Below, in pieces: positions 18,984-56,907 of a stretch of DNA of 64,000 nt. Numbering within the stretch: position 1 is the stretch's first letter; each line of letters opens with the position of its first letter. The DNA lies in assembly GCA_963969345.1 (NCBI GenBank), contig OZ017766.1, positions 7,750,001 to 7,814,000 on the forward strand. Reading direction: 5' to 3'. This stretch comes from Turbatrix aceti. Lineage: Eukaryota; Nematoda; Chromadorea; Rhabditida; Panagrolaimidae. The notes under the pieces are model-generated. The model worked only from the letters and a program-made list of their open reading frames with translations. It was not told the origin of the DNA and did no database searches. The position numbers were made by a program, and so were the translations under genes.

Positions 18984-19015
18984 TTTTGGTTTTAGTTTTG
19001 GTTTCGGTTTTTTTT

Positions 19016-32443: not shown

Positions 32444-32569
32444 TGCGTGCGCTGCATTCAACGCGCGCTTTTTTTGTTCGGCAAACCGTCGTACTTTTTT
32501 GTCAATATTGTTCGATATTGATTTGCTTTGTTTTTAGTTGTTTATCACTTTGATATTCCAGATTTCTGC

Positions 32570-33918: not shown

Positions 33919-34039
33919 TTTGATTTTTTGAAAACTTCTTATTTTTATACTGTTTGCTGTGAATTTTTTGATCCGTTTGGGATGACGTTGTTGTCAATGA
34001 ATGCCGCGTACATGATTTTGAATGTCAGTTGGAAAAAAT

Positions 34040-34190
34040 TTGAGGCCCAAAACCGGAAAAGATACGCTGACGACTTCAAAAATTCTTAGAAGAAAGGAAT
34101 ATCTTACATGCATGCGATGTTTGTTCCCTGTTTCGGAACTGCGTGACAAGATCGTGGAAATCATCAAAAGTCCTGTAGATTGATTTGTTT
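34040..34190 (+). pseudogene. relic fragments of another X gene
   Basis: AGATACGCTGACGACTTCAA resembles the X exon 2 segment for KYADDFK, and 34124-34183 resembles the X 3' end (ATCGTGGAAATCATCAAAAG against ATCGTGGAGCTCATCAAAAG). The pieces are close together and degraded. The same pair occurs 2046 bp further on. Confidence 0.45.
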
Positions 34191-34858
34191 TATTTTAAAC
34201 TGTGTTGAACCGTTTTGGAACAAAGTGTCGTACATAAGCCGCATCAAAAATGATGATTTTTGTAACAAGCATTCAAAATACAACCAAACTTTAACGGCAA
34301 AAAAATATATAATACCAAAGAGACACATTTCAATAAAAAAGAATCACATTATTTTATAATTTTTACTTTTCATAAATTTTTCGGAAGATTTTGGGGGACT
34401 TGCGCAGAGTTTTTTGCAGAACGAAGGAGTTCCCATTGCAACTCTTGTTTTCAAGAACGCACACAAACGTTACCCAATTTTGGGCTGAAATTGCTAGCAA
34501 TATTATGTATCAGTTATTGCTAATACATAACTGTCCATTTCAACCATTGTTGTCAATCACAGTTGTATCGAACTGTTTGCATGCGCACAAGCCGTGTACT
34601 GCCGTTCTTTCTTATGAACGGACATTTTATACAACCTGGGATACCTGCTTGGACATGTCTGCGCTTTTCCAAAAGGACCGCCTCCTACAAAATGAGCCAC
34701 CACGAATGATTTTTTCAAGCAATCGCGCAATCGTTCAGTTGACATTAGCAGCACTAGCTAGTTTATTGTGTTTTCTTTTTGCCGGATTTAGAGCAACTCG
34801 CGCGTTCTGTTCGCATTTTTATACTTTATCCTGAGCGTATTTTTATAGTTTATCTACA

Positions 34859-35964
34859 ATGACAAAGCTCAATTCATCCCTCCAATACATGAAGGATTCC
34901 GTGGTGGAACTTCACGGTAAATACATTTTTTTTATAATATTTGTGCTCTGATAAAATTAACTAAATTTCAGCCCGAATGGTAAACATGGACCTGGAGGAT
35001 GATCTCTACACGGCACTTATCGACGATATGGCAGTCATGGTCAAACGACGAAAACTGCTGGAAACGTACAACACAGAACGACTGGCTCAGGTGGACGAGG
35101 TGAACGCTGACATCGACGCGAGACTGAAAAAGCTGACCGAAGAACTGGAAGACGAAAGGATGGAGCGTCTGGCCAACATTAAACACGACTTCGAAGACAA
35201 AGTCAAGGAACTGCCTGAATTGCCCTGCGCCATTGAACGTGAATTTAGCACCAGGGTCGGAACCGTGAAATTGGTGGCTCGATACATGAAGAAGTACGCT
35301 GACGATAGCAAAGCAGTTCCGGATAAGAAAATTTTTTTCCACGCAGCTGCTTGTTCTAATTGGTACAAATACGTGTCAACAGAATTTGATGGCAAATTCG
35401 ACAATTTGACCAATAAATTATGGTCAAAAGCCAACCTTCCAAACGACACCAAATATCCACTGACACTTGCCGACGTCGATCGCATTATTCACCTGCCGAG
35501 TTACAATGAATGGATTTTTGTCGTCTTGGACACATCGCTCCGAGTCATCCTGACGAATGCCGGGAACAGTGAAGAACAGCCATACCCCTATCTTGTGGTT
35601 TACGACTCCAGTACCCATAAATTTGCTCCTATTTCCGAGAAAAACAAAAACGTGAGTTAAAAACTTGAAACTTTAAAAATTATTTTTTCCGATTTTTTAG
35701 AACAAACGGTTTTGCGAGAAGTGCTTCCGTTACGGACCGTATCCGTGTTCCTGCCAGAACCAGTTCTGCCCGATCTGTCTGCGCACAGGAGACGACGTCA
35801 AGTGCTCCAAGCCATCTTCCAAATCCAAGTCCCGAATCTGTCCAAAATGCAAAGCTCACTGTCACACCGACGATTGCTTCCAGGCTCATCAAAAAATCTG
35901 TCCTCGTTCCGTTTCTGGTCTGCATGACGACATCGTGGAGCTCATCAAAAGTATTGTTGATTAA
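34859..35964 (+). CDS. X3: coiled-coil/zinc protein, divergent N-terminus
   Basis: Exons 34859-34916, 34972-35651 and 35701-35964 join to 333 aa without breaks. The first 42 or so residues differ from X1 (MTKLNSSLQYMKDSVVELH; MVNMDLEDDLYTALIDDMAV), as does the upstream DNA, showing an older subtype. The coil, middle domain and zinc-binding cysteines are all present, with several unique changes (KAVPDKKIFF, GKFDNLTNKLW). Its upstream region (34191-34858) has no S gene; a 147-codon open frame there has no recognised feature. Confidence 0.8.
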
Positions 35965-36904: not shown

Positions 36905-38013
36905 ATGACAAAGCTCAATTCATCCCTCCAATACATGAAGGATTCCGTGGTGGAACTTCACGGTAAATACATTTTTTTTATAATATTTGTGCTCTGATAA
37001 AATTAACTAAATTTCAGCCCGAATGGTAAACATGGACCTGGAGGATGATCTCTACACGGCACTTATCGACGATATGGCAGTCATGATCAAACGACGAAAA
37101 CTGCTGGAAACGTACAACACGGAACGAGTGGCTCAGGTGGACGAGGTGAACGCCGACATCGATGCGAGACTGAAAAAGTTGACCGAAGAACTGGAAGGCG
37201 AGAGGATGGAGCGTCTCGCCAATATTGAACACGACTACGAAGAAAAAATCAAGGAACTGCCTGAATTGCCCTGCGCCATTGAACGTGAATTTAGCACCAG
37301 GGTCGGAACCGGGAAATTGGTAGCTCGATACATGAAAAAGTACGCTGACGATTTTAAAGCGGTTTCGGAAGTGAAAAATTTTTTCCATGCGGCTGTTTGC
37401 TCAAATTGTATGAAGTATGTTTCAACAGAATTTGATGGTAAAATCGACAAAGTGAACGATATTTTATGGAAACAAGCCAACCTTCCAAACGACACCAAAT
37501 ATCCACTGACACTTGCCGACGTCGATCGCATTATTCACTTGCCGAGTTTCTACAATGAAGATATTTTTGTCGTTTTGGACACATCGCTCCGAGTCATCCT
37601 GACGAATGCCGGGTACAGTACAGAACAGACTTGCCCCGAACTTGTGGTTTACGACTCCATTACCCATAAATTTGCTCCTATTTCCAAGAGAAACAAAAAC
37701 GTGAGTTAAAAACTTGAAACTTTATAAATTATTTTTTCCGATTTTTTAGAACAAACGGTTTTGCAAAAAGTGCTTCCGTTACGTACCGAAACCTTGTCCC
37801 TGCCAGAGCCAGTTCTGCCCGATCTGTCTGCGCACAGGAGACGACGTCAAGTGCTCCAAGCCATCTTCCGAATCCAAGTTCCAAATCTGTCCAAAATGCA
37901 ATGCTCACTGCCACACCGACGATTGCTTCCAGGCTCATCAAAAAATCTGTCCTCGTCCCGTTTCTGGTCTGCATGACGACATCGTGGAGCTCATCAAAAG
38001 TATTGTTGATTAA
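36905..38013 (+). CDS. X4: hybrid coiled-coil/zinc protein
   Basis: Exons 36905-36962, 37018-37700 and 37750-38013 give 334 aa. Exon 1 and the start of exon 2 are X3-type; from the ATGATCAAACG at 37083 onward the DNA matches the X5-X8 units exactly as far as compared. This makes it a crossover product at the left edge of the 3810-bp array. All coil and zinc motifs are intact (CPICLRTGDD; CPKCNAHCHTDDC). Confidence 0.82.
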
Positions 38014-38466
38014 TTTGATTTTTTGAAAACTTCTTATTTTTATACTGTTTGCTGTGAATTTTTTGATCCGTTTGGGATGACGTTGTTGTCAATGAATGCC
38101 GCGTACATACATGATTTTTGACGTTAGTTGAAAAAACTTTGATGCCTAAAACCGGAAAAGATACGCTGACAAAATTTCTAGAAGAAAAGAACATCTTACT
38201 ACATGCATGCGATGTTTGCCCCCTGTTTCCTTTGAGAACTGTTTTGAATATAAATAAACGAGAAGAGTGTAAAAAATTATCAGTTATCAAAAAATATGAA
38301 AACTGCCGCTACAAAAACACCTGGCCGAACAGAATGGTTTTTTACACATGGAAGGGGAACATTACTATGTAAGGCCACTGCCGTTCAATTACGAAAAAAA
38401 GGCTTTAATGTATTTACTTTCCTCACCTGGCTAAAGGTGCCAGTCATCATTTTCGCTTCAAGCAAA

Positions 38467-39451
38467 ATGATAGGGTTTGTTTATTGGATGTACAACTCTA
38501 TGATGAGTCCCCTTGCTGTTATTTGTAATGTATTTTTTTTCTGGTTTATCAGAAACAAATGCACGCCCAGTATGCAAGGATATAAAAAGGTGCTCTACTA
38601 CGGATGCATCCACGATTTTTCAACTTCTATTTTTAATTGCTTCGTTCTTTTTGTACGTTTTTTTTTGTTTTGATGAATGTAATAATTTATGTTGTTTTAA
38701 AGTTTTAGGACAGTCATATAGCCGGAAGATGGTTTATACAGTATGCCAGTGGCATCCTGGGAGACTGGTCTGGAAATGCTACGTTCATTGTTGGCATGAC
38801 ACATTTTGCGACCATTTTGTTGTCTATAAACTGTGTGACAATTCAATTTGTTTATCGCTTCTTTTTTGTCATGTTCGATGTAACACTGTCTCCACTCATG
38901 ATGACATGTATCGTAATCATCAGTGCTTGTCCGGTTTTTGGATTCATGGTTATCCCAGAAGTTCCTCTTCTCTGGCAACCCGAAATTCAGAAAGCATTCA
39001 TGGCAGACATAAAAGAAAACTACTCCGATATCTTTGATCCAAAATCCTTTGGCATACCCCTAGCAATTATTGAAACTACAGCGTCGACGATTATCATGTC
39101 TTATTCGTACGCTATTATAATTGTCTCCGGCATCGTTGTTTACCTTCGCCTCCGATCCATGCCGTTCACAAACAATTCACTATCGTAATGGCAGTCGAAG
39201 CCGTCGTACCCCTGTTTGCAGTTATTTTTCCAAAAACCATTCGATACGTTAGCTTTGATGAAAAAAGTATGGCTTTTAAGGTTATTGGGGTCTGGTTCAG
39301 AATCTCTAAACCACTCATGCCAGGTGTTTATCCCTTGCTCAAGATCATGACTATCAAATCTTTTCGAAATGCTGTTACTTCTCAATTTGACAGAAAAATC
39401 AGGATTGCATCGGTGCCGTTTACTGATTTAGCACAAACTACTGTTTCATGA
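38467..39451 (+). pseudogene. G4: Str-superfamily receptor, two-frame copy
   Basis: Exon 1 38467-38652, exon 2 38709-39188, then the second frame 39188-39451. Splice sites match G1 (GTACGT donor). The same stop/start overlap TAATG joins the frames. It differs from G1 at few residues (for example SMMSPLAVICNVFFF, FRISKPLMPG). Confidence 0.75.
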
Positions 39452-40016
39452 TGATTTTTTGAAAAATGTTTGTAAAATGTATTTAGTTGTATTTACTGGT
39501 GTTTAATATTTTGCAACAGATTATTTTCAGTAATATAGCGCTTGCGTTATTTTTGTCGGAAAACTGTTCAACTGACGTTCATCTAAAAATCAAAAAAAAG
39601 CTCTTTAGATGAACAGCGTTTGTTTACAAAATATATATTATACAATTCTCAACGGGCCGGACCGATGTTTTCAAAGATCCAAAGATCAGGGTCGTACAAA
39701 TCGACAATGTAAAATTTTTTTTTGCTAATTTATAAATCAGGATTTTTTTCTAAAATTTATTTTTTGCATAAATTTTCTGGCCGAGGCATACTAAAATCAT
39801 AATATTTTGATTTCTAACCATTTTTTTGCTTTGACAATTTTTTTCTTTTCTTTTTGATAAAATCATCAACAACAACACAAAACATAAAACATCAAAACAT
39901 TCTTATATAATAGCTTTTCACACAGAGAAAAAATTTGTCAGGGAACAAACTTCGCTGGAAACAAACGTAAAAGGTAAAAATAAATTCATATTTTGACCTA
40001 AAAGCAAAAAACTTAC

Positions 40017-40344
40017 GGAAGATGACAACCTGATCCGGAAAAGACGACACGACAGTGCACGCAGACTTCGTATTTCGAGCCGTTTGCATCGTAGCAAAAC
40101 TTTCGTAACCATTGTAGGTTCTGTTGGAGAAAAGGACAGGTAAATAGCATTTACGCTGCAGCTCCAAATACGATTTGACATCCTTGTTGGTGAAATCCTC
40201 TCGGTGAACGTCTCTGATGACTTTGGGTGGCGTGTCAAGACACACAATGTCTGCTTCCGCCGTCAAAAGCAAGAAATCCACAAAAATAAGACGTAAAAAG
40301 CAAAAAAACACCGTATAAACTGCTTTCCGCACGAGATCCTGCAT
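40017..40344 (-). pseudogene. S5: secreted protein copy with frameshifted Cys-rich tail
   Basis: ATG at 40344 (MQDLVRKAVY), signal peptide VDFLLLTAEA, exon 1 to 40172, a 51-nt intron, exon 2 40120-40017. One base is lost after TACGAAA and a net 30 bp are missing, so the tail reads YESFATMQTARNTKS and the ordered cysteines of S1/S2 are lost. If the intron is retained the frame stays open to 39892. Confidence 0.5.
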
Positions 40345-40473
40345 TGCATGCGCTGCATTCAACGCGCGCTTTTTTTGTTCGGCAAATCGTTGTGTTCTTT
40401 TTTTGTCAATATTGTTCGATATTGATTTGCTTTGTTTTTAGTTGTTTATCACTTTGATATTCCAGATTTCTGC

Positions 40474-41823
40474 ATGTCAAGCCTCGTTTCTTCCCTCCAG
40501 AACGTCAAAGATGCGATCGCCGACCTTCAATGTAGGTTTTTTCTTCAATTTTAACTTGAATCTGGGTGACTAAGAGGGGATTCCCTGGCAGATTCCTCGA
40601 TAAAATTTTAGAAAAGATGTGTTTGCTTTTGTTATAGTTTGCCTCGGGGCGACAAATGCATTTTCATGGTTAAAATTAGATTTTATTTAATTTGGATGTT
40701 TGTCAATACATAAAAAACATAATTTTGATGTGTGATTTTTTTATTTTTAGCATCTTGGTTAAAAATTTGGTCAAAAAAGATGCGGGAGATTTTATAAACG
40801 TGGCTTGAATTTACGAATCTGTTTTAGGTCGAACTGCAAACGTAAACCCGGATTCTGATCTTTATGTTACGTTGATTGAAGAGACGCTGACTATGATCAA
40901 ACGACGAAAACTGCTGGAAACGTACAACACGGAACGAGTGGCTCAGGTGGACGAGGTGAACGCCGACATCGATGCGAGACTGAAAAAGTTGACCGAAGAA
41001 CTGGAAGGCGAGAGGATGGAGCGTCTCGCCAATATTGAACACGACTACGAAGAAAAAATCAAGGAACTGCCTGAATTGCCCTGCGCCATTGAACGTGAAT
41101 TTAGCACCAGGGTCGGAACCGGGAAATTGGTAGCTCGATACATGAAAAAGTACGCTGACGATTTTAAAGCGGTTTCGGAAGTGAAAAATTTTTTCCATGC
41201 GGCTGTTTGCTCAAATTGTATGAAGTATGTTTCAACAGAATTTGATGGTAAAATCGACAAAGTGAACGATATTTTATGGAAACAAGCCAACCTTCCAAAC
41301 GACACCAAATATCCACTGACACTTGCCGACGTCGATCGCATTATTCACTTGCCGAGTTTCTACAATGAAGATATTTTTGTCGTTTTGGACACATCGCTCC
41401 GAGTCATCCTGACGAATGCCGGGTACAGTACAGAACAGACTTGCCCCGAACTTGTGGTTTACGACTCCATTACCCATAAATTTGCTCCTATTTCCAAGAG
41501 AAACAAAAACGTGAGTTAAAAACTTGAAACTTTATAAATTATTTTTTCCGATTTTTTAGAACAAACGGTTTTGCAAAAAGTGCTTCCGTTACGTACCGAA
41601 ACCTTGTCCCTGCCAGAGCCAGTTCTGCCCGATCTGTCTGCGCACAGGAGACGACGTCAAGTGCTCCAAGCCATCTTCCGAATCCAAGTTCCAAATCTGT
41701 CCAAAATGCAATGCTCACTGCCACACCGACGATTGCTTCCAGGCTCATCAAAAAATCTGTCCTCGTCCCGTTTCTGGTCTGCATGACGACATCGTGGAGC
41801 TCATCAAAAGTATTGTTGATTAA
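40474..41823 (+). CDS. X5: coiled-coil/zinc protein (array unit)
   Basis: Exons 40474-40531, 40828-41510 and 41560-41823; 334 aa; X1-type N-terminus (MSSLVSSLQNVKDAIADLQ). Intact coil, middle domain and zinc-binding exon. Divergent from S5 across 129 bp. Confidence 0.82.
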
Positions 41824-42276
41824 TTTGATTTTTTGAAAACTTCTTATTTTTATACTGTTTGCTGTGAATTTTTTGATCCGTTTGGGATGACGTTGTTGTC
41901 AATGAATGCCGCGTACATACATGATTTTTGACGTTAGTTGAAAAAACTTTGATGCCTAAAACCGGAAAAGATACGCTGACAAAATTTCTAGAAGAAAAGA
42001 ACATCTTACTACATGCATGCGATGTTTGCCCCCTGTTTCCTTTGAGAACTGTTTTGAATATAAATAAACGAGAAGAGTGTAAAAAATTATCAGTTATCAA
42101 AAAATATGAAAACTGCCGCTACAAAAACACCTGGCCGAACAGAATGGTTTTTTACACATGGAAGGGGAACATTACTATGTAAGGCCACTGCCGTTCAATT
42201 ACGAAAAAAAGGCTTTAATGTATTTACTTTCCTCACCTGGCTAAAGGTGCCAGTCATCATTTTCGCTTCAAGCAAA

Positions 42277-43261
42277 ATGATAGGGTTTGTTTATTGGATG
42301 TACAACTCTATGATGAGTCCCCTTGCTGTTATTTGTAATGTATTTTTTTTCTGGTTTATCAGAAACAAATGCACGCCCAGTATGCAAGGATATAAAAAGG
42401 TGCTCTACTACGGATGCATCCACGATTTTTCAACTTCTATTTTTAATTGCTTCGTTCTTTTTGTACGTTTTTTTTTGTTTTGATGAATGTAATAATTTAT
42501 GTTGTTTTAAAGTTTTAGGACAGTCATATAGCCGGAAGATGGTTTATACAGTATGCCAGTGGCATCCTGGGAGACTGGTCTGGAAATGCTACGTTCATTG
42601 TTGGCATGACACATTTTGCGACCATTTTGTTGTCTATAAACTGTGTGACAATTCAATTTGTTTATCGCTTCTTTTTTGTCATGTTCGATGTAACACTGTC
42701 TCCACTCATGATGACATGTATCGTAATCATCAGTGCTTGTCCGGTTTTTGGATTCATGGTTATCCCAGAAGTTCCTCTTCTCTGGCAACCCGAAATTCAG
42801 AAAGCATTCATGGCAGACATAAAAGAAAACTACTCCGATATCTTTGATCCAAAATCCTTTGGCATACCCCTAGCAATTATTGAAACTACAGCGTCGACGA
42901 TTATCATGTCTTATTCGTACGCTATTATAATTGTCTCCGGCATCGTTGTTTACCTTCGCCTCCGATCCATGCCGTTCACAAACAATTCACTATCGTAATG
43001 GCAGTCGAAGCCGTCGTACCCCTGTTTGCAGTTATTTTTCCAAAAACCATTCGATACGTTAGCTTTGATGAAAAAAGTATGGCTTTTAAGGTTATTGGGG
43101 TCTGGTTCAGAATCTCTAAACCACTCATGCCAGGTGTTTATCCCTTGCTCAAGATCATGACTATCAAATCTTTTCGAAATGCTGTTACTTCTCAATTTGA
43201 CAGAAAAATCAGGATTGCATCGGTGCCGTTTACTGATTTAGCACAAACTACTGTTTCATGA
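42277..43261 (+). pseudogene. G5: Str-superfamily receptor, two-frame copy
   Basis: Exons 42277-42462 and 42519-42998, second frame 42998-43261; same protein as G4 in both frames. Confidence 0.75.
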
Positions 43262-43826
43262 TGATTTTTTGAAAAATGTTTGTAAAATGTATTTAGTTGT
43301 ATTTACTGGTGTTTAATATTTTGCAACAGATTATTTTCAGTAATATAGCGCTTGCGTTATTTTTGTCGGAAAACTGTTCAACTGACGTTCATCTAAAAAT
43401 CAAAAAAAAGCTCTTTAGATGAACAGCGTTTGTTTACAAAATATATATTATACAATTCTCAACGGGCCGGACCGATGTTTTCAAAGATCCAAAGATCAGG
43501 GTCGTACAAATCGACAATGTAAAATTTTTTTTTGCTAATTTATAAATCAGGATTTTTTTCTAAAATTTATTTTTTGCATAAATTTTCTGGCCGAGGCATA
43601 CTAAAATCATAATATTTTGATTTCTAACCATTTTTTTGCTTTGACAATTTTTTTCTTTTCTTTTTGATAAAATCATCAACAACAACACAAAACATAAAAC
43701 ATCAAAACATTCTTATATAATAGCTTTTCACACAGAGAAAAAATTTGTCAGGGAACAAACTTCGCTGGAAACAAACGTAAAAGGTAAAAATAAATTCATA
43801 TTTTGACCTAAAAGCAAAAAACTTAC

Positions 43827-44154
43827 GGAAGATGACAACCTGATCCGGAAAAGACGACACGACAGTGCACGCAGACTTCGTATTTCGAGCCGTTTGCATC
43901 GTAGCAAAACTTTCGTAACCATTGTAGGTTCTGTTGGAGAAAAGGACAGGTAAATAGCATTTACGCTGCAGCTCCAAATACGATTTGACATCCTTGTTGG
44001 TGAAATCCTCTCGGTGAACGTCTCTGATGACTTTGGGTGGCGTGTCAAGACACACAATGTCTGCTTCCGCCGTCAAAAGCAAGAAATCCACAAAAATAAG
44101 ACGTAAAAAGCAAAAAAACACCGTATAAACTGCTTTCCGCACGAGATCCTGCAT
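43827..44154 (-). pseudogene. S6: frameshifted secreted protein copy
   Basis: Same sequence as S5 at a 3810-bp offset, including the lost base and the deletion. Confidence 0.5.
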
Positions 44155-44283
44155 TGCATGCGCTGCATTCAACGCGCGCTTTTTTTGTTCGGCAAATCGT
44201 TGTGTTCTTTTTTTGTCAATATTGTTCGATATTGATTTGCTTTGTTTTTAGTTGTTTATCACTTTGATATTCCAGATTTCTGC

Positions 44284-45633
44284 ATGTCAAGCCTCGTTTC
44301 TTCCCTCCAGAACGTCAAAGATGCGATCGCCGACCTTCAATGTAGGTTTTTTCTTCAATTTTAACTTGAATCTGGGTGACTAAGAGGGGATTCCCTGGCA
44401 GATTCCTCGATAAAATTTTAGAAAAGATGTGTTTGCTTTTGTTATAGTTTGCCTCGGGGCGACAAATGCATTTTCATGGTTAAAATTAGATTTTATTTAA
44501 TTTGGATGTTTGTCAATACATAAAAAACATAATTTTGATGTGTGATTTTTTTATTTTTAGCATCTTGGTTAAAAATTTGGTCAAAAAAGATGCGGGAGAT
44601 TTTATAAACGTGGCTTGAATTTACGAATCTGTTTTAGGTCGAACTGCAAACGTAAACCCGGATTCTGATCTTTATGTTACGTTGATTGAAGAGACGCTGA
44701 CTATGATCAAACGACGAAAACTGCTGGAAACGTACAACACGGAACGAGTGGCTCAGGTGGACGAGGTGAACGCCGACATCGATGCGAGACTGAAAAAGTT
44801 GACCGAAGAACTGGAAGGCGAGAGGATGGAGCGTCTCGCCAATATTGAACACGACTACGAAGAAAAAATCAAGGAACTGCCTGAATTGCCCTGCGCCATT
44901 GAACGTGAATTTAGCACCAGGGTCGGAACCGGGAAATTGGTAGCTCGATACATGAAAAAGTACGCTGACGATTTTAAAGCGGTTTCGGAAGTGAAAAATT
45001 TTTTCCATGCGGCTGTTTGCTCAAATTGTATGAAGTATGTTTCAACAGAATTTGATGGTAAAATCGACAAAGTGAACGATATTTTATGGAAACAAGCCAA
45101 CCTTCCAAACGACACCAAATATCCACTGACACTTGCCGACGTCGATCGCATTATTCACTTGCCGAGTTTCTACAATGAAGATATTTTTGTCGTTTTGGAC
45201 ACATCGCTCCGAGTCATCCTGACGAATGCCGGGTACAGTACAGAACAGACTTGCCCCGAACTTGTGGTTTACGACTCCATTACCCATAAATTTGCTCCTA
45301 TTTCCAAGAGAAACAAAAACGTGAGTTAAAAACTTGAAACTTTATAAATTATTTTTTCCGATTTTTTAGAACAAACGGTTTTGCAAAAAGTGCTTCCGTT
45401 ACGTACCGAAACCTTGTCCCTGCCAGAGCCAGTTCTGCCCGATCTGTCTGCGCACAGGAGACGACGTCAAGTGCTCCAAGCCATCTTCCGAATCCAAGTT
45501 CCAAATCTGTCCAAAATGCAATGCTCACTGCCACACCGACGATTGCTTCCAGGCTCATCAAAAAATCTGTCCTCGTCCCGTTTCTGGTCTGCATGACGAC
45601 ATCGTGGAGCTCATCAAAAGTATTGTTGATTAA
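44284..45633 (+). CDS. X6: coiled-coil/zinc protein (array unit)
   Basis: Exons 44284-44341, 44638-45320 and 45370-45633; encodes the same 334 aa as X5. Confidence 0.82.
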
Positions 45634-46086
45634 TTTGATTTTTTGAAAACTTCTTATTTTTATACTGTTTGCTGTGAATTTTTTGATCCGTTTGGGATGA
45701 CGTTGTTGTCAATGAATGCCGCGTACATACATGATTTTTGACGTTAGTTGAAAAAACTTTGATGCCTAAAACCGGAAAAGATACGCTGACAAAATTTCTA
45801 GAAGAAAAGAACATCTTACTACATGCATGCGATGTTTGCCCCCTGTTTCCTTTGAGAACTGTTTTGAATATAAATAAACGAGAAGAGTGTAAAAAATTAT
45901 CAGTTATCAAAAAATATGAAAACTGCCGCTACAAAAACACCTGGCCGAACAGAATGGTTTTTTACACATGGAAGGGGAACATTACTATGTAAGGCCACTG
46001 CCGTTCAATTACGAAAAAAAGGCTTTAATGTATTTACTTTCCTCACCTGGCTAAAGGTGCCAGTCATCATTTTCGCTTCAAGCAAA

Positions 46087-47071
46087 ATGATAGGGTTTGT
46101 TTATTGGATGTACAACTCTATGATGAGTCCCCTTGCTGTTATTTGTAATGTATTTTTTTTCTGGTTTATCAGAAACAAATGCACGCCCAGTATGCAAGGA
46201 TATAAAAAGGTGCTCTACTACGGATGCATCCACGATTTTTCAACTTCTATTTTTAATTGCTTCGTTCTTTTTGTACGTTTTTTTTTGTTTTGATGAATGT
46301 AATAATTTATGTTGTTTTAAAGTTTTAGGACAGTCATATAGCCGGAAGATGGTTTATACAGTATGCCAGTGGCATCCTGGGAGACTGGTCTGGAAATGCT
46401 ACGTTCATTGTTGGCATGACACATTTTGCGACCATTTTGTTGTCTATAAACTGTGTGACAATTCAATTTGTTTATCGCTTCTTTTTTGTCATGTTCGATG
46501 TAACACTGTCTCCACTCATGATGACATGTATCGTAATCATCAGTGCTTGTCCGGTTTTTGGATTCATGGTTATCCCAGAAGTTCCTCTTCTCTGGCAACC
46601 CGAAATTCAGAAAGCATTCATGGCAGACATAAAAGAAAACTACTCCGATATCTTTGATCCAAAATCCTTTGGCATACCCCTAGCAATTATTGAAACTACA
46701 GCGTCGACGATTATCATGTCTTATTCGTACGCTATTATAATTGTCTCCGGCATCGTTGTTTACCTTCGCCTCCGATCCATGCCGTTCACAAACAATTCAC
46801 TATCGTAATGGCAGTCGAAGCCGTCGTACCCCTGTTTGCAGTTATTTTTCCAAAAACCATTCGATACGTTAGCTTTGATGAAAAAAGTATGGCTTTTAAG
46901 GTTATTGGGGTCTGGTTCAGAATCTCTAAACCACTCATGCCAGGTGTTTATCCCTTGCTCAAGATCATGACTATCAAATCTTTTCGAAATGCTGTTACTT
47001 CTCAATTTGACAGAAAAATCAGGATTGCATCGGTGCCGTTTACTGATTTAGCACAAACTACTGTTTCATGA
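46087..47071 (+). pseudogene. G6: Str-superfamily receptor, two-frame copy
   Basis: Exons 46087-46272 and 46329-46808, second frame 46808-47071; same as G4 and G5. Confidence 0.75.
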
Positions 47072-47636
47072 TGATTTTTTGAAAAATGTTTGTAAAATGT
47101 ATTTAGTTGTATTTACTGGTGTTTAATATTTTGCAACAGATTATTTTCAGTAATATAGCGCTTGCGTTATTTTTGTCGGAAAACTGTTCAACTGACGTTC
47201 ATCTAAAAATCAAAAAAAAGCTCTTTAGATGAACAGCGTTTGTTTACAAAATATATATTATACAATTCTCAACGGGCCGGACCGATGTTTTCAAAGATCC
47301 AAAGATCAGGGTCGTACAAATCGACAATGTAAAATTTTTTTTTGCTAATTTATAAATCAGGATTTTTTTCTAAAATTTATTTTTTGCATAAATTTTCTGG
47401 CCGAGGCATACTAAAATCATAATATTTTGATTTCTAACCATTTTTTTGCTTTGACAATTTTTTTCTTTTCTTTTTGATAAAATCATCAACAACAACACAA
47501 AACATAAAACATCAAAACATTCTTATATAATAGCTTTTCACACAGAGAAAAAATTTGTCAGGGAACAAACTTCGCTGGAAACAAACGTAAAAGGTAAAAA
47601 TAAATTCATATTTTGACCTAAAAGCAAAAAACTTAC

Positions 47637-47964
47637 GGAAGATGACAACCTGATCCGGAAAAGACGACACGACAGTGCACGCAGACTTCGTATTTCGAGC
47701 CGTTTGCATCGTAGCAAAACTTTCGTAACCATTGTAGGTTCTGTTGGAGAAAAGGACAGGTAAATAGCATTTACGCTGCAGCTCCAAATACGATTTGACA
47801 TCCTTGTTGGTGAAATCCTCTCGGTGAACGTCTCTGATGACTTTGGGTGGCGTGTCAAGACACACAATGTCTGCTTCCGCCGTCAAAAGCAAGAAATCCA
47901 CAAAAATAAGACGTAAAAAGCAAAAAAACACCGTATAAACTGCTTTCCGCACGAGATCCTGCAT
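47637..47964 (-). pseudogene. S7: frameshifted secreted protein copy
   Basis: Same sequence as S5 and S6. Confidence 0.5.
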
Positions 47965-48093
47965 TGCATGCGCTGCATTCAACGCGCGCTTTTTTTGTTC
48001 GGCAAATCGTTGTGTTCTTTTTTTGTCAATATTGTTCGATATTGATTTGCTTTGTTTTTAGTTGTTTATCACTTTGATATTCCAGATTTCTGC

Positions 48094-49443
48094 ATGTCAA
48101 GCCTCGTTTCTTCCCTCCAGAACGTCAAAGATGCGATCGCCGACCTTCAATGTAGGTTTTTTCTTCAATTTTAACTTGAATCTGGGTGACTAAGAGGGGA
48201 TTCCCTGGCAGATTCCTCGATAAAATTTTAGAAAAGATGTGTTTGCTTTTGTTATAGTTTGCCTCGGGGCGACAAATGCATTTTCATGGTTAAAATTAGA
48301 TTTTATTTAATTTGGATGTTTGTCAATACATAAAAAACATAATTTTGATGTGTGATTTTTTTATTTTTAGCATCTTGGTTAAAAATTTGGTCAAAAAAGA
48401 TGCGGGAGATTTTATAAACGTGGCTTGAATTTACGAATCTGTTTTAGGTCGAACTGCAAACGTAAACCCGGATTCTGATCTTTATGTTACGTTGATTGAA
48501 GAGACGCTGACTATGATCAAACGACGAAAACTGCTGGAAACGTACAACACGGAACGAGTGGCTCAGGTGGACGAGGTGAACGCCGACATCGATGCGAGAC
48601 TGAAAAAGTTGACCGAAGAACTGGAAGGCGAGAGGATGGAGCGTCTCGCCAATATTGAACACGACTACGAAGAAAAAATCAAGGAACTGCCTGAATTGCC
48701 CTGCGCCATTGAACGTGAATTTAGCACCAGGGTCGGAACCGGGAAATTGGTAGCTCGATACATGAAAAAGTACGCTGACGATTTTAAAGCGGTTTCGGAA
48801 GTGAAAAATTTTTTCCATGCGGCTGTTTGCTCAAATTGTATGAAGTATGTTTCAACAGAATTTGATGGTAAAATCGACAAAGTGAACGATATTTTATGGA
48901 AACAAGCCAACCTTCCAAACGACACCAAATATCCACTGACACTTGCCGACGTCGATCGCATTATTCACTTGCCGAGTTTCTACAATGAAGATATTTTTGT
49001 CGTTTTGGACACATCGCTCCGAGTCATCCTGACGAATGCCGGGTACAGTACAGAACAGACTTGCCCCGAACTTGTGGTTTACGACTCCATTACCCATAAA
49101 TTTGCTCCTATTTCCAAGAGAAACAAAAACGTGAGTTAAAAACTTGAAACTTTATAAATTATTTTTTCCGATTTTTTAGAACAAACGGTTTTGCAAAAAG
49201 TGCTTCCGTTACGTACCGAAACCTTGTCCCTGCCAGAGCCAGTTCTGCCCGATCTGTCTGCGCACAGGAGACGACGTCAAGTGCTCCAAGCCATCTTCCG
49301 AATCCAAGTTCCAAATCTGTCCAAAATGCAATGCTCACTGCCACACCGACGATTGCTTCCAGGCTCATCAAAAAATCTGTCCTCGTCCCGTTTCTGGTCT
49401 GCATGACGACATCGTGGAGCTCATCAAAAGTATTGTTGATTAA
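48094..49443 (+). CDS. X7: coiled-coil/zinc protein (array unit)
   Basis: Exons 48094-48151, 48448-49130 and 49180-49443; same protein as X5. Confidence 0.82.
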
Positions 49444-49896
49444 TTTGATTTTTTGAAAACTTCTTATTTTTATACTGTTTGCTGTGAATTTTTTGATCCG
49501 TTTGGGATGACGTTGTTGTCAATGAATGCCGCGTACATACATGATTTTTGACGTTAGTTGAAAAAACTTTGATGCCTAAAACCGGAAAAGATACGCTGAC
49601 AAAATTTCTAGAAGAAAAGAACATCTTACTACATGCATGCGATGTTTGCCCCCTGTTTCCTTTGAGAACTGTTTTGAATATAAATAAACGAGAAGAGTGT
49701 AAAAAATTATCAGTTATCAAAAAATATGAAAACTGCCGCTACAAAAACACCTGGCCGAACAGAATGGTTTTTTACACATGGAAGGGGAACATTACTATGT
49801 AAGGCCACTGCCGTTCAATTACGAAAAAAAGGCTTTAATGTATTTACTTTCCTCACCTGGCTAAAGGTGCCAGTCATCATTTTCGCTTCAAGCAAA

Positions 49897-50881
49897 ATGA
49901 TAGGGTTTGTTTATTGGATGTACAACTCTATGATGAGTCCCCTTGCTGTTATTTGTAATGTATTTTTTTTCTGGTTTATCAGAAACAAATGCACGCCCAG
50001 TATGCAAGGATATAAAAAGGTGCTCTACTACGGATGCATCCACGATTTTTCAACTTCTATTTTTAATTGCTTCGTTCTTTTTGTACGTTTTTTTTTGTTT
50101 TGATGAATGTAATAATTTATGTTGTTTTAAAGTTTTAGGACAGTCATATAGCCGGAAGATGGTTTATACAGTATGCCAGTGGCATCCTGGGAGACTGGTC
50201 TGGAAATGCTACGTTCATTGTTGGCATGACACATTTTGCGACCATTTTGTTGTCTATAAACTGTGTGACAATTCAATTTGTTTATCGCTTCTTTTTTGTC
50301 ATGTTCGATGTAACACTGTCTCCACTCATGATGACATGTATCGTAATCATCAGTGCTTGTCCGGTTTTTGGATTCATGGTTATCCCAGAAGTTCCTCTTC
50401 TCTGGCAACCCGAAATTCAGAAAGCATTCATGGCAGACATAAAAGAAAACTACTCCGATATCTTTGATCCAAAATCCTTTGGCATACCCCTAGCAATTAT
50501 TGAAACTACAGCGTCGACGATTATCATGTCTTATTCGTACGCTATTATAATTGTCTCCGGCATCGTTGTTTACCTTCGCCTCCGATCCATGCCGTTCACA
50601 AACAATTCACTATCGTAATGGCAGTCGAAGCCGTCGTACCCCTGTTTGCAGTTATTTTTCCAAAAACCATTCGATACGTTAGCTTTGATGAAAAAAGTAT
50701 GGCTTTTAAGGTTATTGGGGTCTGGTTCAGAATCTCTAAACCACTCATGCCAGGTGTTTATCCCTTGCTCAAGATCATGACTATCAAATCTTTTCGAAAT
50801 GCTGTTACTTCTCAATTTGACAGAAAAATCAGGATTGCATCGGTGCCGTTTACTGATTTAGCACAAACTACTGTTTCATGA
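49897..50881 (+). pseudogene. G7: Str-superfamily receptor, two-frame copy
   Basis: Exons 49897-50082 and 50139-50618, second frame 50618-50881; same as G4-G6. Confidence 0.75.
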
Positions 50882-51446
50882 TGATTTTTTGAAAAATGTT
50901 TGTAAAATGTATTTAGTTGTATTTACTGGTGTTTAATATTTTGCAACAGATTATTTTCAGTAATATAGCGCTTGCGTTATTTTTGTCGGAAAACTGTTCA
51001 ACTGACGTTCATCTAAAAATCAAAAAAAAGCTCTTTAGATGAACAGCGTTTGTTTACAAAATATATATTATACAATTCTCAACGGGCCGGACCGATGTTT
51101 TCAAAGATCCAAAGATCAGGGTCGTACAAATCGACAATGTAAAATTTTTTTTTGCTAATTTATAAATCAGGATTTTTTTCTAAAATTTATTTTTTGCATA
51201 AATTTTCTGGCCGAGGCATACTAAAATCATAATATTTTGATTTCTAACCATTTTTTTGCTTTGACAATTTTTTTCTTTTCTTTTTGATAAAATCATCAAC
51301 AACAACACAAAACATAAAACATCAAAACATTCTTATATAATAGCTTTTCACACAGAGAAAAAATTTGTCAGGGAACAAACTTCGCTGGAAACAAACGTAA
51401 AAGGTAAAAATAAATTCATATTTTGACCTAAAAGCAAAAAACTTAC

Positions 51447-51774
51447 GGAAGATGACAACCTGATCCGGAAAAGACGACACGACAGTGCACGCAGACTTCG
51501 TATTTCGAGCCGTTTGCATCGTAGCAAAACTTTCGTAACCATTGTAGGTTCTGTTGGAGAAAAGGACAGGTAAATAGCATTTACGCTGCAGCTCCAAATA
51601 CGATTTGACATCCTTGTTGGTGAAATCCTCTCGGTGAACGTCTCTGATGACTTTGGGTGGCGTGTCAAGACACACAATGTCTGCTTCCGCCGTCAAAAGC
51701 AAGAAATCCACAAAAATAAGACGTAAAAAGCAAAAAAACACCGTATAAACTGCTTTCCGCACGAGATCCTGCAT
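51447..51774 (-). pseudogene. S8: frameshifted secreted protein copy
   Basis: Same sequence as S5-S7; divergent from the X8 fusion gene. Confidence 0.5.
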
Positions 51775-51903
51775 TGCATGCGCTGCATTCAACGCGCGCT
51801 TTTTTTGTTCGGCAAATCGTTGTGTTCTTTTTTTGTCAATATTGTTCGATATTGATTTGCTTTGTTTTTAGTTGTTTATCACTTTGATATTCCAGATTTC
51901 TGC

Positions 51904-53647
51904 ATGTCAAGCCTCGTTTCTTCCCTCCAGAACGTCAAAGATGCGATCGCCGACCTTCAATGTAGGTTTTTTCTTCAATTTTAACTTGAATCTGGGTGAC
52001 TAAGAGGGGATTCCCTGGCAGATTCCTCGATAAAATTTTAGAAAAGATGTGTTTGCTTTTGTTATAGTTTGCCTCGGGGCGACAAATGCATTTTCATGGT
52101 TAAAATTAGATTTTATTTAATTTGGATGTTTGTCAATACATAAAAAACATAATTTTGATGTGTGATTTTTTTATTTTTAGCATCTTGGTTAAAAATTTGG
52201 TCAAAAAAGATGCGGGAGATTTTATAAACGTGGCTTGAATTTACGAATCTGTTTTAGGTCGAACTGCAAACGTAAACCCGGATTCTGATCTTTATGTTAC
52301 GTTGATTGAAGAGACGCTGACTATGATCAAACGACGAAAACTGCTGGAAACGTACAACACGGAACGAGTGGCTCAGGTGGACGAGGTGAACGCCGACATC
52401 GATGCGAGACTGAAAAAGTTGACCGAAGAACTGGAAGGCGAGAGGATGGAGCGTCTCGCCAATATTGAACACGACTACGAAGAAAAAATCAAGGAACTGC
52501 CTGAATTGCCCTGCGCCATTGAACGTGAATTTAGCACCAGGGTCGGAACCGGGAAATTGGTAGCTCGATACATGAAAAAGTACGCTGACGATTTTAAAGC
52601 GGTTTCGGAAGTGAAAAATTTTTTCCATGCGGCTGTTTGCTCAAATTGTATGAAGTATGTTTCAACAGAATTTGATGGTAAAATCGACAAAGTGAACGAT
52701 ATTTTATGGAAACAAGCCAACCTTCCAAACGACACCAAATATCCACTGACACTTGCCGACGTCGATCGCATTATTCACTTGCCGAGTTTCTACAATTCAA
52801 AAAATATGAAAACTGCCGCTACAAAAACACCTGGCCGAACAGAATGGTTTTTTACACATGGAAGGGGAACATTACTATGTAAGGCCACTGCCGTTCAATT
52901 ACGAAAAAAAGGCTTTAATGTATTTACTTTCCTCACCTGGCTAAAGGTGCCAGTCATCATTTTCGCTTCAAGCAAAATGATAGGGTTTGTTTATTGGATG
53001 TACAACTCTATGATGAGTCCCCTTGCTGTTATTTGTAATGTATTTTTTTTCTGGTTTATCAGAAACAAATGCACGCCCAGTATGCAAGGATATAAAAAGG
53101 TGCTCTACTACGGATGCATCCACGATTTTTCAACTTCTATTTTTAATTGCTTCGTTCTTTTTGTACGTTTTTTTTTGTTTTGATGAATGTAATAATTTAT
53201 GTTGTTTTAAAGTTTTAGGACAGTCATATAGCCGGAAGATGGTTTATACAGTATGCCAGTGGCATCCTGGGAGACTGGTCTGGAAATGCTACGTTCATTG
53301 TTGGCATGACACATTTTGCGACCATTTTGTTGTCTATAAACTGTGTGACAATTCAATTTGTTTATCGCTTCTTTTTTGTCATGTTCGATGTAACACTGTC
53401 TCCACTCATGATGACATGTATCGTAATCATCAGTGCTTGTCCGGTTTTTGGATTCATGGTTATCCCAGAAGTTCCTCTTCTCTGGCAACCCGAAATTCAG
53501 AAAGCATTCATGGCAGACATAAAAGAAAACTACTCCGATATCTTTGATCCAAAATCCTTTGGCATACCCCTAGCAATTATTGAAACTACAGCGTCGACGA
53601 TTATCATGTCTTTTTTTATTATTATTTCACCATTACTCAGTGGTTAG
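51904..53647 (+). pseudogene. X8::G8 in-frame fusion, then broken by a LINE fragment
   Basis: Exons 51904-51961 and 52258 onward are normal X until 52795, where about 730 bp of the unit (rest of X exon 2, exon 3 and the G upstream region) are deleted. The frame passes from IIHLPSFYN directly into KNMKTAATKTPG and on into the receptor MIGFVYWMYN. With the usual G intron (53163-53218) the joined frame would give about 463 aa: coiled coil, half the middle domain, then TM1-TM5. It ends at 53647 inside the inserted LINE sequence. The zinc-binding exon is lost. Probably non-functional as a receptor, but a transcript is possible. Confidence 0.72.
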
Positions 53648-53940
53648 TTATCATTAGACCAGATGTTAGGAGGCACAAATGACGTCCACGTAGGCGTAAA
53701 TGTCTCGATTCGTTTTGGTCGCGATTTCTTCTTCCCCTCGTCGTTGTGGTCTGTTTTTCGTCTTGTTGAACACCGAGTTGAGCGAATCGGCCCATCGTAA
53801 GGAAGGGTGTCCCACGGGTCGTTTTCCTTGTGGTATCCACAAGGTCAGTCGTCGGGCCCATCTGTTTTCGTCTGCCTCCAGGAGCTTTCGCGCGTATGTC
53901 CATTTTCGGCGTTCCGCTTCCTTCACCCATTATCATGTCT
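53600..53940 (-). mobile_element. 5'-truncated non-LTR retrotransposon (LINE) fragment with 12-bp target duplications
   Basis: ATTATCATGTCT occurs at 53600-53611 and 53929-53940; the DNA between (53612-53928) is absent from the other units. On the minus strand it encodes RRKWTYARKLLEADENRW and KRPVGHPSLRWADSLN, the end of LINE reverse-transcriptase proteins, where a basic GKRPxGxPxxRW motif is common. A stop and an A-rich tail follow at the left end. Short length, target duplication and A-rich tail are typical of truncated target-primed insertion. Confidence 0.85.
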
Positions 53941-54290
53941 TATTCGTACGCTATTATAATTGTCTCCGGCATCGTTGTTTACCTTCGCCTCCGATCCATG
54001 CCGTTCACAAACAATTCACTATCGTAATGGCAGTCGAAGCCGTCGTACCCCTGTTTGCAGTTATTTTTCCAAAAACCATTCGATACGTTAGCTTTGATGA
54101 AAAAAGTATGGCTTTTAAGGTTATTGGGGTCTGGTTCAGAATCTCTAAACCACTCATGCCAGGTGTTTATCCCTTGCTCAAGATCATGACTATCAAATCT
54201 TTTCGAAATGCTGTTACTTCTCAATTTGACAGAAAAATCAGGATTGCATCGGTGCCGTTTACTGATTTAGCACAAACTACTGTTTCATGA
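53941..54290 (+). pseudogene. G8 3' remainder of Str-superfamily receptor
   Basis: Continues the receptor after the LINE: end of TM5 (SYSYAIIIVSGIVVYLRLR), stop/start TAATG at 54025-54029, and the TM6-TM7 frame to 54290. Cut off from its 5' part. Confidence 0.75.
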
Positions 54291-54657
54291 TGATTTTTTG
54301 AAAAATGTTTGTAAAATGTATTTAGTTGTATTTACTGGTGTTTAATATTTTGCAACAGATTATTTTCAGTAATATAGCGCTTGCGTTATTTTTGTCGGAA
54401 AACTGTTCAACTGACGTTCATCTAAAAATCAAAAAAAAGCTCTTTAGATGAACAGCGTTTGTTTACAAAATATATATTATACAATTCTCAACGGGCCGGA
54501 CCGATGTTTTCAAAGATCCAAAGATCAGGGTCGTACAAATCGACAATGTAAAATTTTTTTTTGCTAATTTATAAATCAGGATTTTTTTCTAAAATTTATT
54601 TTTTGCATAAATTTTCTGGCCGAGGCATACTAAAATCATAATATTTTGATTTCTAAC

Positions 54658-54968
54658 TGTAGTAGTTCTCTATGCCACTCGCGATAGATACTTTACTCAC
54701 AAGCAAAGACCTGTAACCAATACATATAATACAATATACACAGGTCCAATCATTACCTCAACAAGGGCGGAGTTCCGTCGGGTTGAGGTCTTTGGGTTGC
54801 TCTGGGCTTGCCTTCGGCCGGGCGTCGATCACGCAGCCAACGAACACGACCGCTCGCGGCGACAGACAAAACAACAACTGAGACAATAGGAAAGGGAAAT
54901 ACAGGAAACAATTATTCTACGCGAGATAAGAGTGCGCACGCGTTGCACCAACTCGTACTCGCGTAACA
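54658..54968 (-). repeat. 3' LTR
   Basis: 311-bp long terminal repeat, the downstream one given the minus orientation. Its plus-strand text runs from TGTAGTAG to GTAACA. Confidence 0.88.
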
Positions 54969-54978
54969 CTTCCCTCTC

Positions 54979-55881
54979 TCAACAGAAACGGACAATAAGG
55001 GCTGAATCATGGGACTGGGGCAAATCTCCTTCCTGAGACGTCGTCGTCGGATTCACCCTGCGACGGGCAGTCGTCGGGACACGTTTCCTTGCAAACACAC
55101 TGCGTCTGCGGCTTCTCGAAATCCGGCGTCGGTTTCGGTTGTCGTCCAAGAGTGCTTCGGCATGACTGCTGTTACCGGGAACCATCTTGCTGGGACTGGT
55201 TCGGATGCTGAGCAGCATCAGGCGGACTGCTTCCTGCAGGTCCACCACATCGGCGTTCATCTTCAGTCCATCCGTGAGCATGTGCACGTATCGCTCGGCT
55301 GGATACGGCAGGGACGGACAATGCTGGATGCTTTGAACATCTTCAATCGTAGGCAATAGTGCTGGGTGCGCTGCCTTCGCACGTGGCACGCACTTGCCTT
55401 CGGTGATAACAGGAACACTCGCTATCACCACTTTCCCCTCCTTTTTGACATTGCACTGGCTTGCAATCGTCTGGGGTACCGCTTCTGCTCGTCCTTCAAA
55501 CTTGACTTTCGAGAGCTGGTCATCGTTGGCTGCCTCTGCGATCCGCACGGCAAGGGTCCGACCGTCCTGGTCACCCTTCCGTTCATGAATGGTCGCTGCA
55601 CCGATGTGATCCTGGGCTCCTGTGACCATCTGGGTTTTCTGCTGAGTGACCCTGGCCTCCTGCGAAGTCGTCGAATTGATGGCACGTGCACTCCTTAAAC
55701 ATACAGACACGACCATCTGGGTTTTCTGCTGATTGACCCTGGCCTCCTGGATCGACGATCGCCTTGAGACTGCAACCGCTCCGATTGCTGGCCCTGCAGC
55801 TTTCGCGGCAAGCGGTTTGCTCTTCTTCGCATCCTTCTCGGGCTCGGTCGTGAGATCTGTCTTGTTCGGAGTTGCGGGCAT
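54979..55881 (-). CDS. gag-like protein of the LTR element
   Basis: 300 aa from an ATG at 55881. The N-terminus is rich in Lys, Ala and Gln and contains the segment QEARVNQQKTQMV, repeated as QEARVTQQKTQMV. The C-terminal part is strongly basic (RRRISRSRRRSVFARKR), suited to nucleic-acid binding as in nucleocapsid tails; no CCHC knuckle is visible. It almost fills the internal region. Assignment as gag rests on position between LTRs and composition, not on a recognised domain. Confidence 0.6.
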   Translation of the reverse strand: MPATPNKTDLTTEPEKDAKKSKPLAAKAAGPAIGAVAVSRRSSIQEARVNQQKTQMVVSVCLRSARAINSTTSQEARVTQQKTQMVTGAQDHIGAATIHERKGDQDGRTLAVRIAEAANDDQLSKVKFEGRAEAVPQTIASQCNVKKEGKVVIASVPVITEGKCVPRAKAAHPALLPTIEDVQSIQHCPSLPYPAERYVHMLTDGLKMNADVVDLQEAVRLMLLSIRTSPSKMVPGNSSHAEALLDDNRNRRRISRSRRRSVFARKRVPTTARRRVNPTTTSQEGDLPQSHDSALIVRFC

Positions 55882-55936
55882 GGCTTGGATCGGCTTCTCG
55901 TCACCTCTGTAGGTCGCCGAATCCTCTCGTCACCAA

Positions 55937-56247
55937 TGTAGTAGTTCTCTATGCCACTCGCGATAGATACTTTACTCACAAGCAAAGACCTGTAACCAAT
56001 ACATATAATACAATATACACAGGTCCAATCATTACCTCAACCAGGGTGGAGTTCCGTCGGGTTGAGGTCTTTGGGTTGCTCTGGGCTTGCCTTCGGCCGG
56101 GCGTCGATCACGCAGCCAACGAACACGACCGCTCGCGGCGACAGACAAAACAACAACTGAGACAATAGGAAAGGGAAATACAGGAAACAATTATTCTACG
56201 CGAGATAAGAGTGCGCACGCGTTGCACCAACTCGTACTCGCGTAACA
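55937..56247 (-). repeat. 5' LTR
   Basis: 311-bp long terminal repeat on the transcription-start side of the element. Confidence 0.88.
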
Positions 56248-56450
56248 CTAACCATTTTTTTGCTTTGACAATTTTTTTCTTTTCTTTTTGATAAAATCAT
56301 CAACAACAACACAAAACATAAAACATCAAAACATTCTTATATAATAGCTTTTCACACAGAGAAAAAATTTGTCAGGGAACAAACTTCGCTGGAAACAAAC
56401 GTAAAAGGTAAAAATAAATTCATATTTTGACCTAAAAGCAAAAAACTTAC

Positions 56451-56778
56451 GGAAGATGACAACCTGATCCGGAAAAGACGACACGACAGTGCACGCAGAC
56501 TTCGTATTTCGAGCCGTTTGCATCGTAGCAAAACTTTTGTAACCATTGTAGGTTCTGTTGGAGAAAAGGACAGGTAAATAGCATTTACGCTGCAGCTCCA
56601 AATACGATTTGACATCCTTGTTGGTGAAATCCTCTCGGCGAACGCCTCTGATGACTTTGGGTGGCGTGTCAAGACACACAATGTCTGCTTCCGCCGTCAA
56701 AAGCAAGAAATCCACAAAAATAAGACGTAAAAAGCAAAAAAACACCGTATAAACTGCTTTCCGCACGAGATCCTGCAT
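56451..56778 (-). pseudogene. S9: frameshifted secreted protein copy at the array end
   Basis: Same structure as S5-S8 with a few substitutions. RGVRREDF matches S2 and not S5-S8 (RDVHREDF), a patch that may come from gene conversion. Carries the same lost base and deletion in the tail. Confidence 0.5.
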
Positions 56779-56907
56779 TGCATGCGCTGCGTTCAACGCG
56801 CGCTTTTTTTGTTCGGCAAATCGTTGTGTTCTTTTTTTGTCAATATTGTTCGATATTGATTTGCTTTGTTTTTAGTTGTTTATCACTTTGATATTCCAGA
56901 TTTCTGC

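What the first reader, a model, noticed from the sequence alone, without database searches (positions are those of the whole stretch)
37083..52795. Four-plus apparently identical 3810-bp tandem copies of an S-X-G gene cassette
Every frame repeats at exact 3810-bp spacing with no visible change, while older copies (X1, X2, G1) differ at many sites. This means a burst of amplification in the very recent past, strong homogenisation, or an assembly error that duplicated one unit. The end unit has its own deletion and two transposons, so at least that unit is real and distinct.
Basis: partly seen in the sequence, partly recalled or inferred. Interest (0 to 1): 0.75.

Follow-up and report, generated by a model that had tools for sequence, protein, structure and literature searches.

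The report
Recent tandem amplification of nematode gene
A stretch of nematode chromosome holds about five head-to-tail copies of the same 3,810-base block, the first four letter-for-letter identical, most likely because unequal exchange between neighbouring members of a large orphan gene family copied it very recently; the copy number still needs raw reads to confirm.

Summary
Window 37083-52796 repeats at lag 3,810 without a mismatch (11,904 bases compared): four full units plus 474 bases. A fifth unit runs to 57233 with a 730-base deletion, a LINE-like fragment, a small LTR element and four base changes. The genome is a nematode's by COX1, species unnamed. Only gene X is intact. G is a broken Str-chemoreceptor relative, S a frame-broken secreted-protein gene. 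X is a 334-residue coiled-coil plus cysteine-rich protein of a large family (152 matching stretches); no relative was found in two searches of a 5.8-billion-protein set. The left edge is a recombination junction inside X: 1,177 bases before it equal the X1 upstream region, then identity switches to the array type. I read it as very recent tandem amplification by unequal homologous exchange. A wrong number of internal units in the assembly cannot be excluded without reads. New member of a known kind; moderate-low interest.

The parts
37083..52796 (+). Perfect part of the tandem array: 4 full 3810-base units (37083-40892, 40893-44702, 44703-48512, 48513-52322) plus the first 474 bases of unit 5
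   Evidence: 0 mismatches at lags 3810, 7620, 11430
52323..57233 (+). Fifth, damaged unit: 730-base deletion at 52796/52797, two insertions, 4 base changes; homology ends at unit position 3717
36905..38013 (+). X2 gene (334 aa, intact): first unit's X, with an X1-type 5' end and an array-type body; junction 37083-37085
40474..41823 (+). X gene of the array (exons 40474-40531, 40828-41510, 41560-41823, predicted by hand from splice signals; 334 aa, intact)
44284..45633 (+). X gene, identical copy
48094..49443 (+). X gene, identical copy
51904..52796 (+). X of unit 5, truncated by the 730-base deletion
38296..39451 (+). G: relative of Str-type 7TM chemoreceptors with a frame break between TM5 and TM6 (pseudogene); repeats at +3810, +7620, +11430 and, interrupted, in unit 5
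39892..40344 (-). S: small secreted-protein gene whose frame departs from a relative elsewhere that is open throughout; repeats at +3810, +7620, +11430; the unit 5 copy at 56326-56778 carries 3 of the 4 base changes
53613..53928 (-). Insertion 1 in unit 5: 316-base LINE-like fragment, poly-T at the left end, 13-base target-site duplication
54658..56247 (.). Insertion 2 in unit 5: 1,590-base LTR element, LTRs of about 311 bases (TG...CA) with 2 differences, 5-base target-site duplication
33863..35039 (+). 1,177-base block identical to 35909-37085 (lag 2046), ending at the array's left junction
32495..34013 (+). X0: 99.2% like the array's X region (9 mismatches and 3 gaps in 1,521 columns), frame of X exon 2 broken
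19433..23253 (+). Older single S-X-G cassette (91.8-95.1% to the array unit), the likely ancestral arrangement

Best explanation
This is a real, very young tandem amplification of one 3,810-base S-X-G block in a nematode gene cluster, made by unequal homologous exchange. SHOWN: an older single S-X-G cassette lies at 19.4-23.3 kb. The array's left edge is a recombinant X gene, with an X1-type 5' part (1,177 identical bases) and an array-type body. The internal unit boundary falls at the same base of X exon 2. Four units are identical. A fifth lost 730 bases and took two insertions from transposon families that have 99-100% identical copies elsewhere. INFERRED: misaligned sister or homologous X genes crossed over in exon 2 to make a second copy, and the long identical stretch then favoured further unequal exchanges that added units. 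Unit 5 dropped out of efficient exchange once it was interrupted. Only X stays intact, so the effect, if any, is extra dose of X; G and S are passengers.
For: Exact identity at lag 3810. Recombinant left junction: 100% to X1 over the 903 bases tested before 37083, then 90.6% after it; exact block of 1,177 bases at lag 2046. Internal junction in the same codon context as natural X genes (X0 reads through the same point with the same letters). Insertions with 13- and 5-base target-site duplications in unit 5 only. Four X genes intact (X2 and three identical internal copies). Another X-family site on C5 has 2,839 bases repeated exactly 5,015 bases apart. Published C. elegans rates: 3.4e-7 duplications per gene per generation (Lipinski et al. 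2011 as told in passages of PMC3857721), and a wild-type substitution rate of about 1.84e-9 per site per generation (table passage of PMC8727991 giving 0.0184 beside 0.42 for the knock-down lines, whose rate the text gives as 4.22e-8). With that rate, zero changes in 15,714 bases bounds the age at about 104,000 generations (borrowed rate, star-tree assumption).
Against: No reads were available. The sequencing technology is unknown and the assembly has a 200-N run 39 kb left of the window, so the number of identical internal units may be wrong. Unit 5 carries three structural changes but only 4 base changes, all within 254 bases (chance of such clustering 0.0023). That could mean ongoing conversion rather than simple youth. 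The LTR pair differs at 2 sites, which if clock-like suggests unit 5 is older than its near-identity implies (Fisher p = 0.10, not significant).
Confidence: 0.72

Rival explanations
1. Assembly artefact in copy number: the true locus has unit 1, perhaps one internal unit and unit 5, and the assembler (or polishing with multi-mapping reads) inserted or flattened further identical units.
For: Perfect identity of four units; a 200-N run 39 kb left of the window shows that the assembly is not seamless; the sequencing method is unknown; a 2,839-base exact local repeat on C5 shows that exact copies recur in this assembly.
Against: Unit 1 (X1-type 5' end) and unit 5 (730-base deletion) are both distinct. 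Within the array, the array-type 5' end joined to a complete X body occurs only in internal units (X0 has the same arrangement but differs by 9 mismatches and 3 gaps), so having no internal unit would need a misjoin inside a 474-base shared stretch (inference). The 39 matches to a 601-base X probe, a lower bound, lie on C1 and C5 and none on a small contig.
Confidence: 0.2
2. Old array kept identical by continuing gene conversion (concerted evolution) rather than a recent burst.
For: Unit 5 has one deletion and two insertions but only 4 base changes in about 2,990 compared bases, all in 254 bases. At two of the four sites unit 5 carries the base of the S copy at 32 kb. X0 is 99.2% like the array over 1,521 columns, above the 92.4-96.6% that one search gives for the wider 32-kb copy.
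Against: Both inserted transposon families have 99-100% identical copies elsewhere, so the insertions can themselves be very recent. The cluster copies outside the array are not homogenised (82.1-96.6%).
Confidence: 0.2
3. Selected amplification: extra X dose was favoured and the array is an adaptive copy-number change.
For: X is the only intact gene of the unit. Exon 2 of the family is under constraint at depth (dN/dS 0.15-0.54 for pairs with dS above 0.4). The family is large.
Against: Among close copies dN/dS rises (0.52-1.30 for pairs with dS below 0.25), as relaxed constraint would give; 4 of 15 fetched family loci carry a stop in exon 2; no expression, population or fitness data.
Confidence: 0.1

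Closest known systems
Tandem gene duplication by unequal crossing-over (non-allelic homologous recombination), as at Drosophila Bar and rosy or human alpha-globin (named in passages of PMC3857721; Bar only in its reference list)
   Same: Head-to-tail direct copies, junction inside a homologous gene, chimeric end gene, near-zero divergence
   Different: The crossing-over substrate is an orphan gene family; two of the three genes carried along are already broken; copy number not verified by reads
Large lineage-restricted nematode gene families (Parapristionchus and 'ultra large gene families' papers seen only in a search listing with titles and abstract starts)
   Same: Many copies, clustered on a few chromosomes, some broken copies, local duplication (these features of such families are recalled, not read in those papers)
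   Different: X has no Pfam domain over its cut-off in the array copy and no match in the protein set searched
Nematode Str chemoreceptors (PF10326)
   Same: G is 47% and 72% identical, over its main exon, to two relatives in this genome that pass the Pfam cut-off
   Different: The cluster copies have lost the frame between TM5 and TM6

Membership tests
Tandem duplication by unequal homologous exchange | Direct head-to-tail copies of constant period | tested here: met
Tandem duplication by unequal homologous exchange | Breakpoint inside homologous sequence, giving a chimeric end copy | tested here: met
   X2: X1-type before 37083, array-type after it
Tandem duplication by unequal homologous exchange | Copy number supported by read depth or spanning reads | not testable with these tools
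   No reads held
Str chemoreceptor (G) | Pfam PF10326 over its cut-off | tested here: not met
   Array piece 13 bits, unit-5 ORF 17.1 bits against a cut-off of 22.4; both are fragments. Single-exon pieces of the relatives L031 and L030 score 44.8 and 34.5. Hence filed as a pseudogene related to that family, not as a working member
Str chemoreceptor (G) | Uninterrupted reading frame through seven helices | tested here: not met
   Frame change between TM5 and TM6 in the array and in the 22-kb copy
LTR retrotransposon (insert 2) | Direct LTRs TG...CA with a short target-site duplication | tested here: met
   about 311-base LTRs, 2 differences, 5-base duplication
LTR retrotransposon (insert 2) | Recognisable gag/pol | tested here: not met
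   300-residue ORF without a Pfam match; probably a non-autonomous element
LINE-type insertion (insert 1) | 3'-end fragment with A-rich tail and target-site duplication longer than that of LTR elements | tested here: met
   poly-T at the left end (poly-A on the other strand), 13-base duplication
LINE-type insertion (insert 1) | Link to a full-length element with a reverse transcriptase | not tested
   Only copies of the 316-base piece were searched; the LINE reading rests on the insertion hallmarks
TRIM/PML-like coiled-coil proteins (X) | PML_CC over its Pfam cut-off, or a RING/B-box | tested here: not met
   Array X: 15.6-15.7 bits against a cut-off of 23. 8 of 19 family members match PML_CC at E <= 1, best E 0.00025 (their bits were not shown), as coiled coils often do. 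No RING or B-box family among the listed matches for 18 C-terminal exons
C2H2/UBZ-like zinc fingers (X C-terminus) | Confident fold match | tested here: inconclusive

The most novel reading that the evidence does not exclude
X is the founder of an undescribed, lineage-restricted nematode protein family (coiled coil plus a Cys/His domain with 12 conserved candidate ligands; dozens of members with an open exon 2 on three chromosomes), and this array is a snapshot of that family expanding in real time by exchange inside X exon 2, possibly under selection for dose as in arms-race or selfish gene families.
Probability: 0.25. Interest if true: 0.5.

Novelty: new member of a known kind. Interest (0 to 1): 0.33.

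Why it matters
If the copy number is real, the locus shows each stage of tandem amplification side by side: an old single cassette, a chimeric junction gene, identical new units, and a decaying end unit marked by fresh transposons. It also points to a large gene family without known relatives. If the copy number is wrong, it is a useful test case for how assemblies treat identical multi-kilobase repeats.

Tried and rejected

Species: four paper searches did not name it. A 60.9-Mb nematode, Oscheius tipulae, was considered from passages of PMC8022731 but not tested. COX1 matched one unnamed protein (source ENA) at 96% and named nematodes at up to 87%.

My first repeat scan asked for alignments of 98% or more and missed the 1,177-base exact block because BLAST had merged it into a 94% alignment. 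The exact-match scan corrected this.

Dating units 1-4 against unit 5: if the four base changes are mutations, units 1-4 look younger than unit 5 (averaged probability of no change 0.003). If they are one conversion tract the difference vanishes (0.51). Left undecided.

No Rfam match at gathering score and no tRNA in the window. Considered and set aside: dispersed transposition of the unit (the copies are in order and head to tail, with the junction inside a gene; terminal repeats of the unit were not searched for specifically) and haplotype duplication (copies are in tandem and identical; not tested with reads).
Full report
CHECK OF THE OBSERVATION. The window (64,000 bases, no N) repeats at lag 3,810 from 37083 to 52796 without a mismatch. 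The identical runs are 11,904 bases at lag 3,810, 8,094 at 7,620 and 4,284 at 11,430. That is four full units and 474 bases. Using the unit as a BLAST query on the surrounding 264 kb, the four units match 3810/3810. The 12 aligned pieces outside the array match at 82.1-96.6%. The fifth unit continues to 57233.

END UNIT. Unit 5 lacks 730 bases (junction 52796/52797). It holds a 316-base insert whose left end is poly-T and which is flanked by a 13-base duplication of the target, as expected of a 5'-truncated LINE copy inserted on the minus strand. It also holds a 1,590-base element with direct LTRs beginning TG and ending CA and a 5-base target duplication. The LTRs differ at 2 positions. In the two genome searches only the best 40 candidates were scored (of 98 for the LTR, of 665 for the LINE fragment). 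40 of 41 listed LTR matches and 36 of 40 listed LINE-fragment matches are 98-100% identical, on several chromosomes (the query's own place included). Both families therefore look recently active, and the insertions need not be old. The remaining sequence of unit 5 differs from the other units at four places, all in the S region within 254 bases. At two of these unit 5 carries the base of the S copy at 32 kb and the array that of the 20-kb copy; at the other two unit 5 is alone.

JUNCTION. The left edge at 37083 lies in exon 2 of X2. Upstream, 36180-37082 is 100% identical to 34134-35036, the region upstream of X1 (903 bases tested). Downstream, identity to X1 falls to 90.6% and identity to the array becomes 100%. 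The exact block is 1,177 bases, 33863-35039 = 35909-37085. X2 is thus a chimera: X1-type 5' end, array-type body. The internal unit boundary (40892/40893) is the same point of X exon 2 but with the other type of 5' end. X0 at 32 kb reads through that point with the same letters (32495-33213 = 40399-41117). A homologous crossover between two X genes explains this without any added sequence.

GENES. X: start 40474, three exons, 334 residues, intact, identical in the three internal copies. X2 is also intact. Unit 5's X is truncated by the deletion, and X0 is frame-broken. In 18 family members the C-terminal exon keeps 11 Cys and 2 His as invariant columns, of which 11 Cys and one His lie in the putative metal-binding part. 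Exon 2 starts with a predicted long helix in an otherwise poor model. Genome-wide, 152 stretches match exon 2: not a gene count, and a lower bound. By my hand count about 50 of the printed rows cover nearly all of exon 2 without a stop, on C1, C2 and C5; partial matches also lie on C4 and C6. For 19 distinct open exon-2 sequences (incomplete or stop-bearing copies left out), dN/dS is 0.15-0.54 for pairs with dS above 0.4 and 0.52-1.30 for pairs with dS below 0.25. X found no relative among about 5.8 billion proteins in two searches, within that tool's word-based sensitivity. G: related to Str chemoreceptors. Two relatives elsewhere in the genome run through TM5-TM6 in one frame, whereas the array copies and the 22-kb copy change frame there. 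S: a relative at C1:7365887 aligns to all 87 residues of the query (70% identity) in one open frame. The array copies match only 1-54 in one frame and about 45-86 in another, with a shortened stretch visible in the alignment. The 20-kb and 32-kb S copies are frame-split too. The query was itself put together from two copies.

AGE AND MECHANISM. No change in 15,714 bases gives an upper 95% bound of 1.9e-4 per site per lineage, about 104,000 generations if a C. elegans-like rate of 1.84e-9 holds (rate from passages of PMC8727991). This is a borrowed rate and a star tree is assumed. Gene duplication in C. elegans mutation-accumulation lines was estimated at 3.4e-7 per gene per generation, said there to be two orders of magnitude above the per-site substitution rate (passages of PMC3857721). 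Identical new tandem copies are therefore not surprising in nematodes. The mechanism, unequal homologous exchange, is inferred from the junctions. That later units were added by exchange among identical units is inferred from their identity.

ASSEMBLY. Without reads the number of internal units is unverified. My inference: unit 1 is distinct by its 5' end and unit 5 by its deletion. An internal unit (array-type 5' end plus complete X body) would have to be invented by a misjoin within a 474-base shared stretch if it did not exist. So at least one internal unit is probably real, while the figure of three is uncertain. The assembly has a 200-N run at C1:7710686. A second case of exact local repetition, 2,839 bases repeated 5,015 bases apart on C5 at X-family genes, shows that exact copies are not unique to this locus. 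It cannot tell biology from assembly.

CONCLUSION. Confirmed observation; recent tandem amplification is the best reading, with copy number to be verified. The kind is known (tandem duplication by unequal exchange). The family that is being copied has no relative in the protein set searched here; I made no literature search aimed at it.

Noticed in passing
window 18183-19082 and 30362-31261 (minus): Two uninterrupted 299-residue ORFs like dTDP-glucose 4,6-dehydratase, 12,179 bases apart, with 5 base differences and no amino-acid difference: another recent duplication, with the protein conserved.
   Followed up: partly
G000 C5:9968001-9984000 (L047-L048): 2,839 bases repeated exactly 5,015 bases apart at X-family genes, and a further 1,244-base piece 99.84% identical about 23 kb away.
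   Followed up: partly
C1, C2, C5 of G000 (partial matches on C4, C6): X family with 152 matching stretches and no relative found in public proteins.
   Followed up: partly
window 54658-56247: Small LTR element (about 1.6 kb, about 311-base LTRs) with many 98-100% identical LTR copies; its 300-residue ORF has no Pfam match.
   Followed up: partly
window 23362-25365 and 14722-15965: Inverted repeats of 869 and 587 aligned bases at about 96.6% identity, perhaps foldback or terminal-inverted-repeat elements.
   Followed up: no
   Followed up: no
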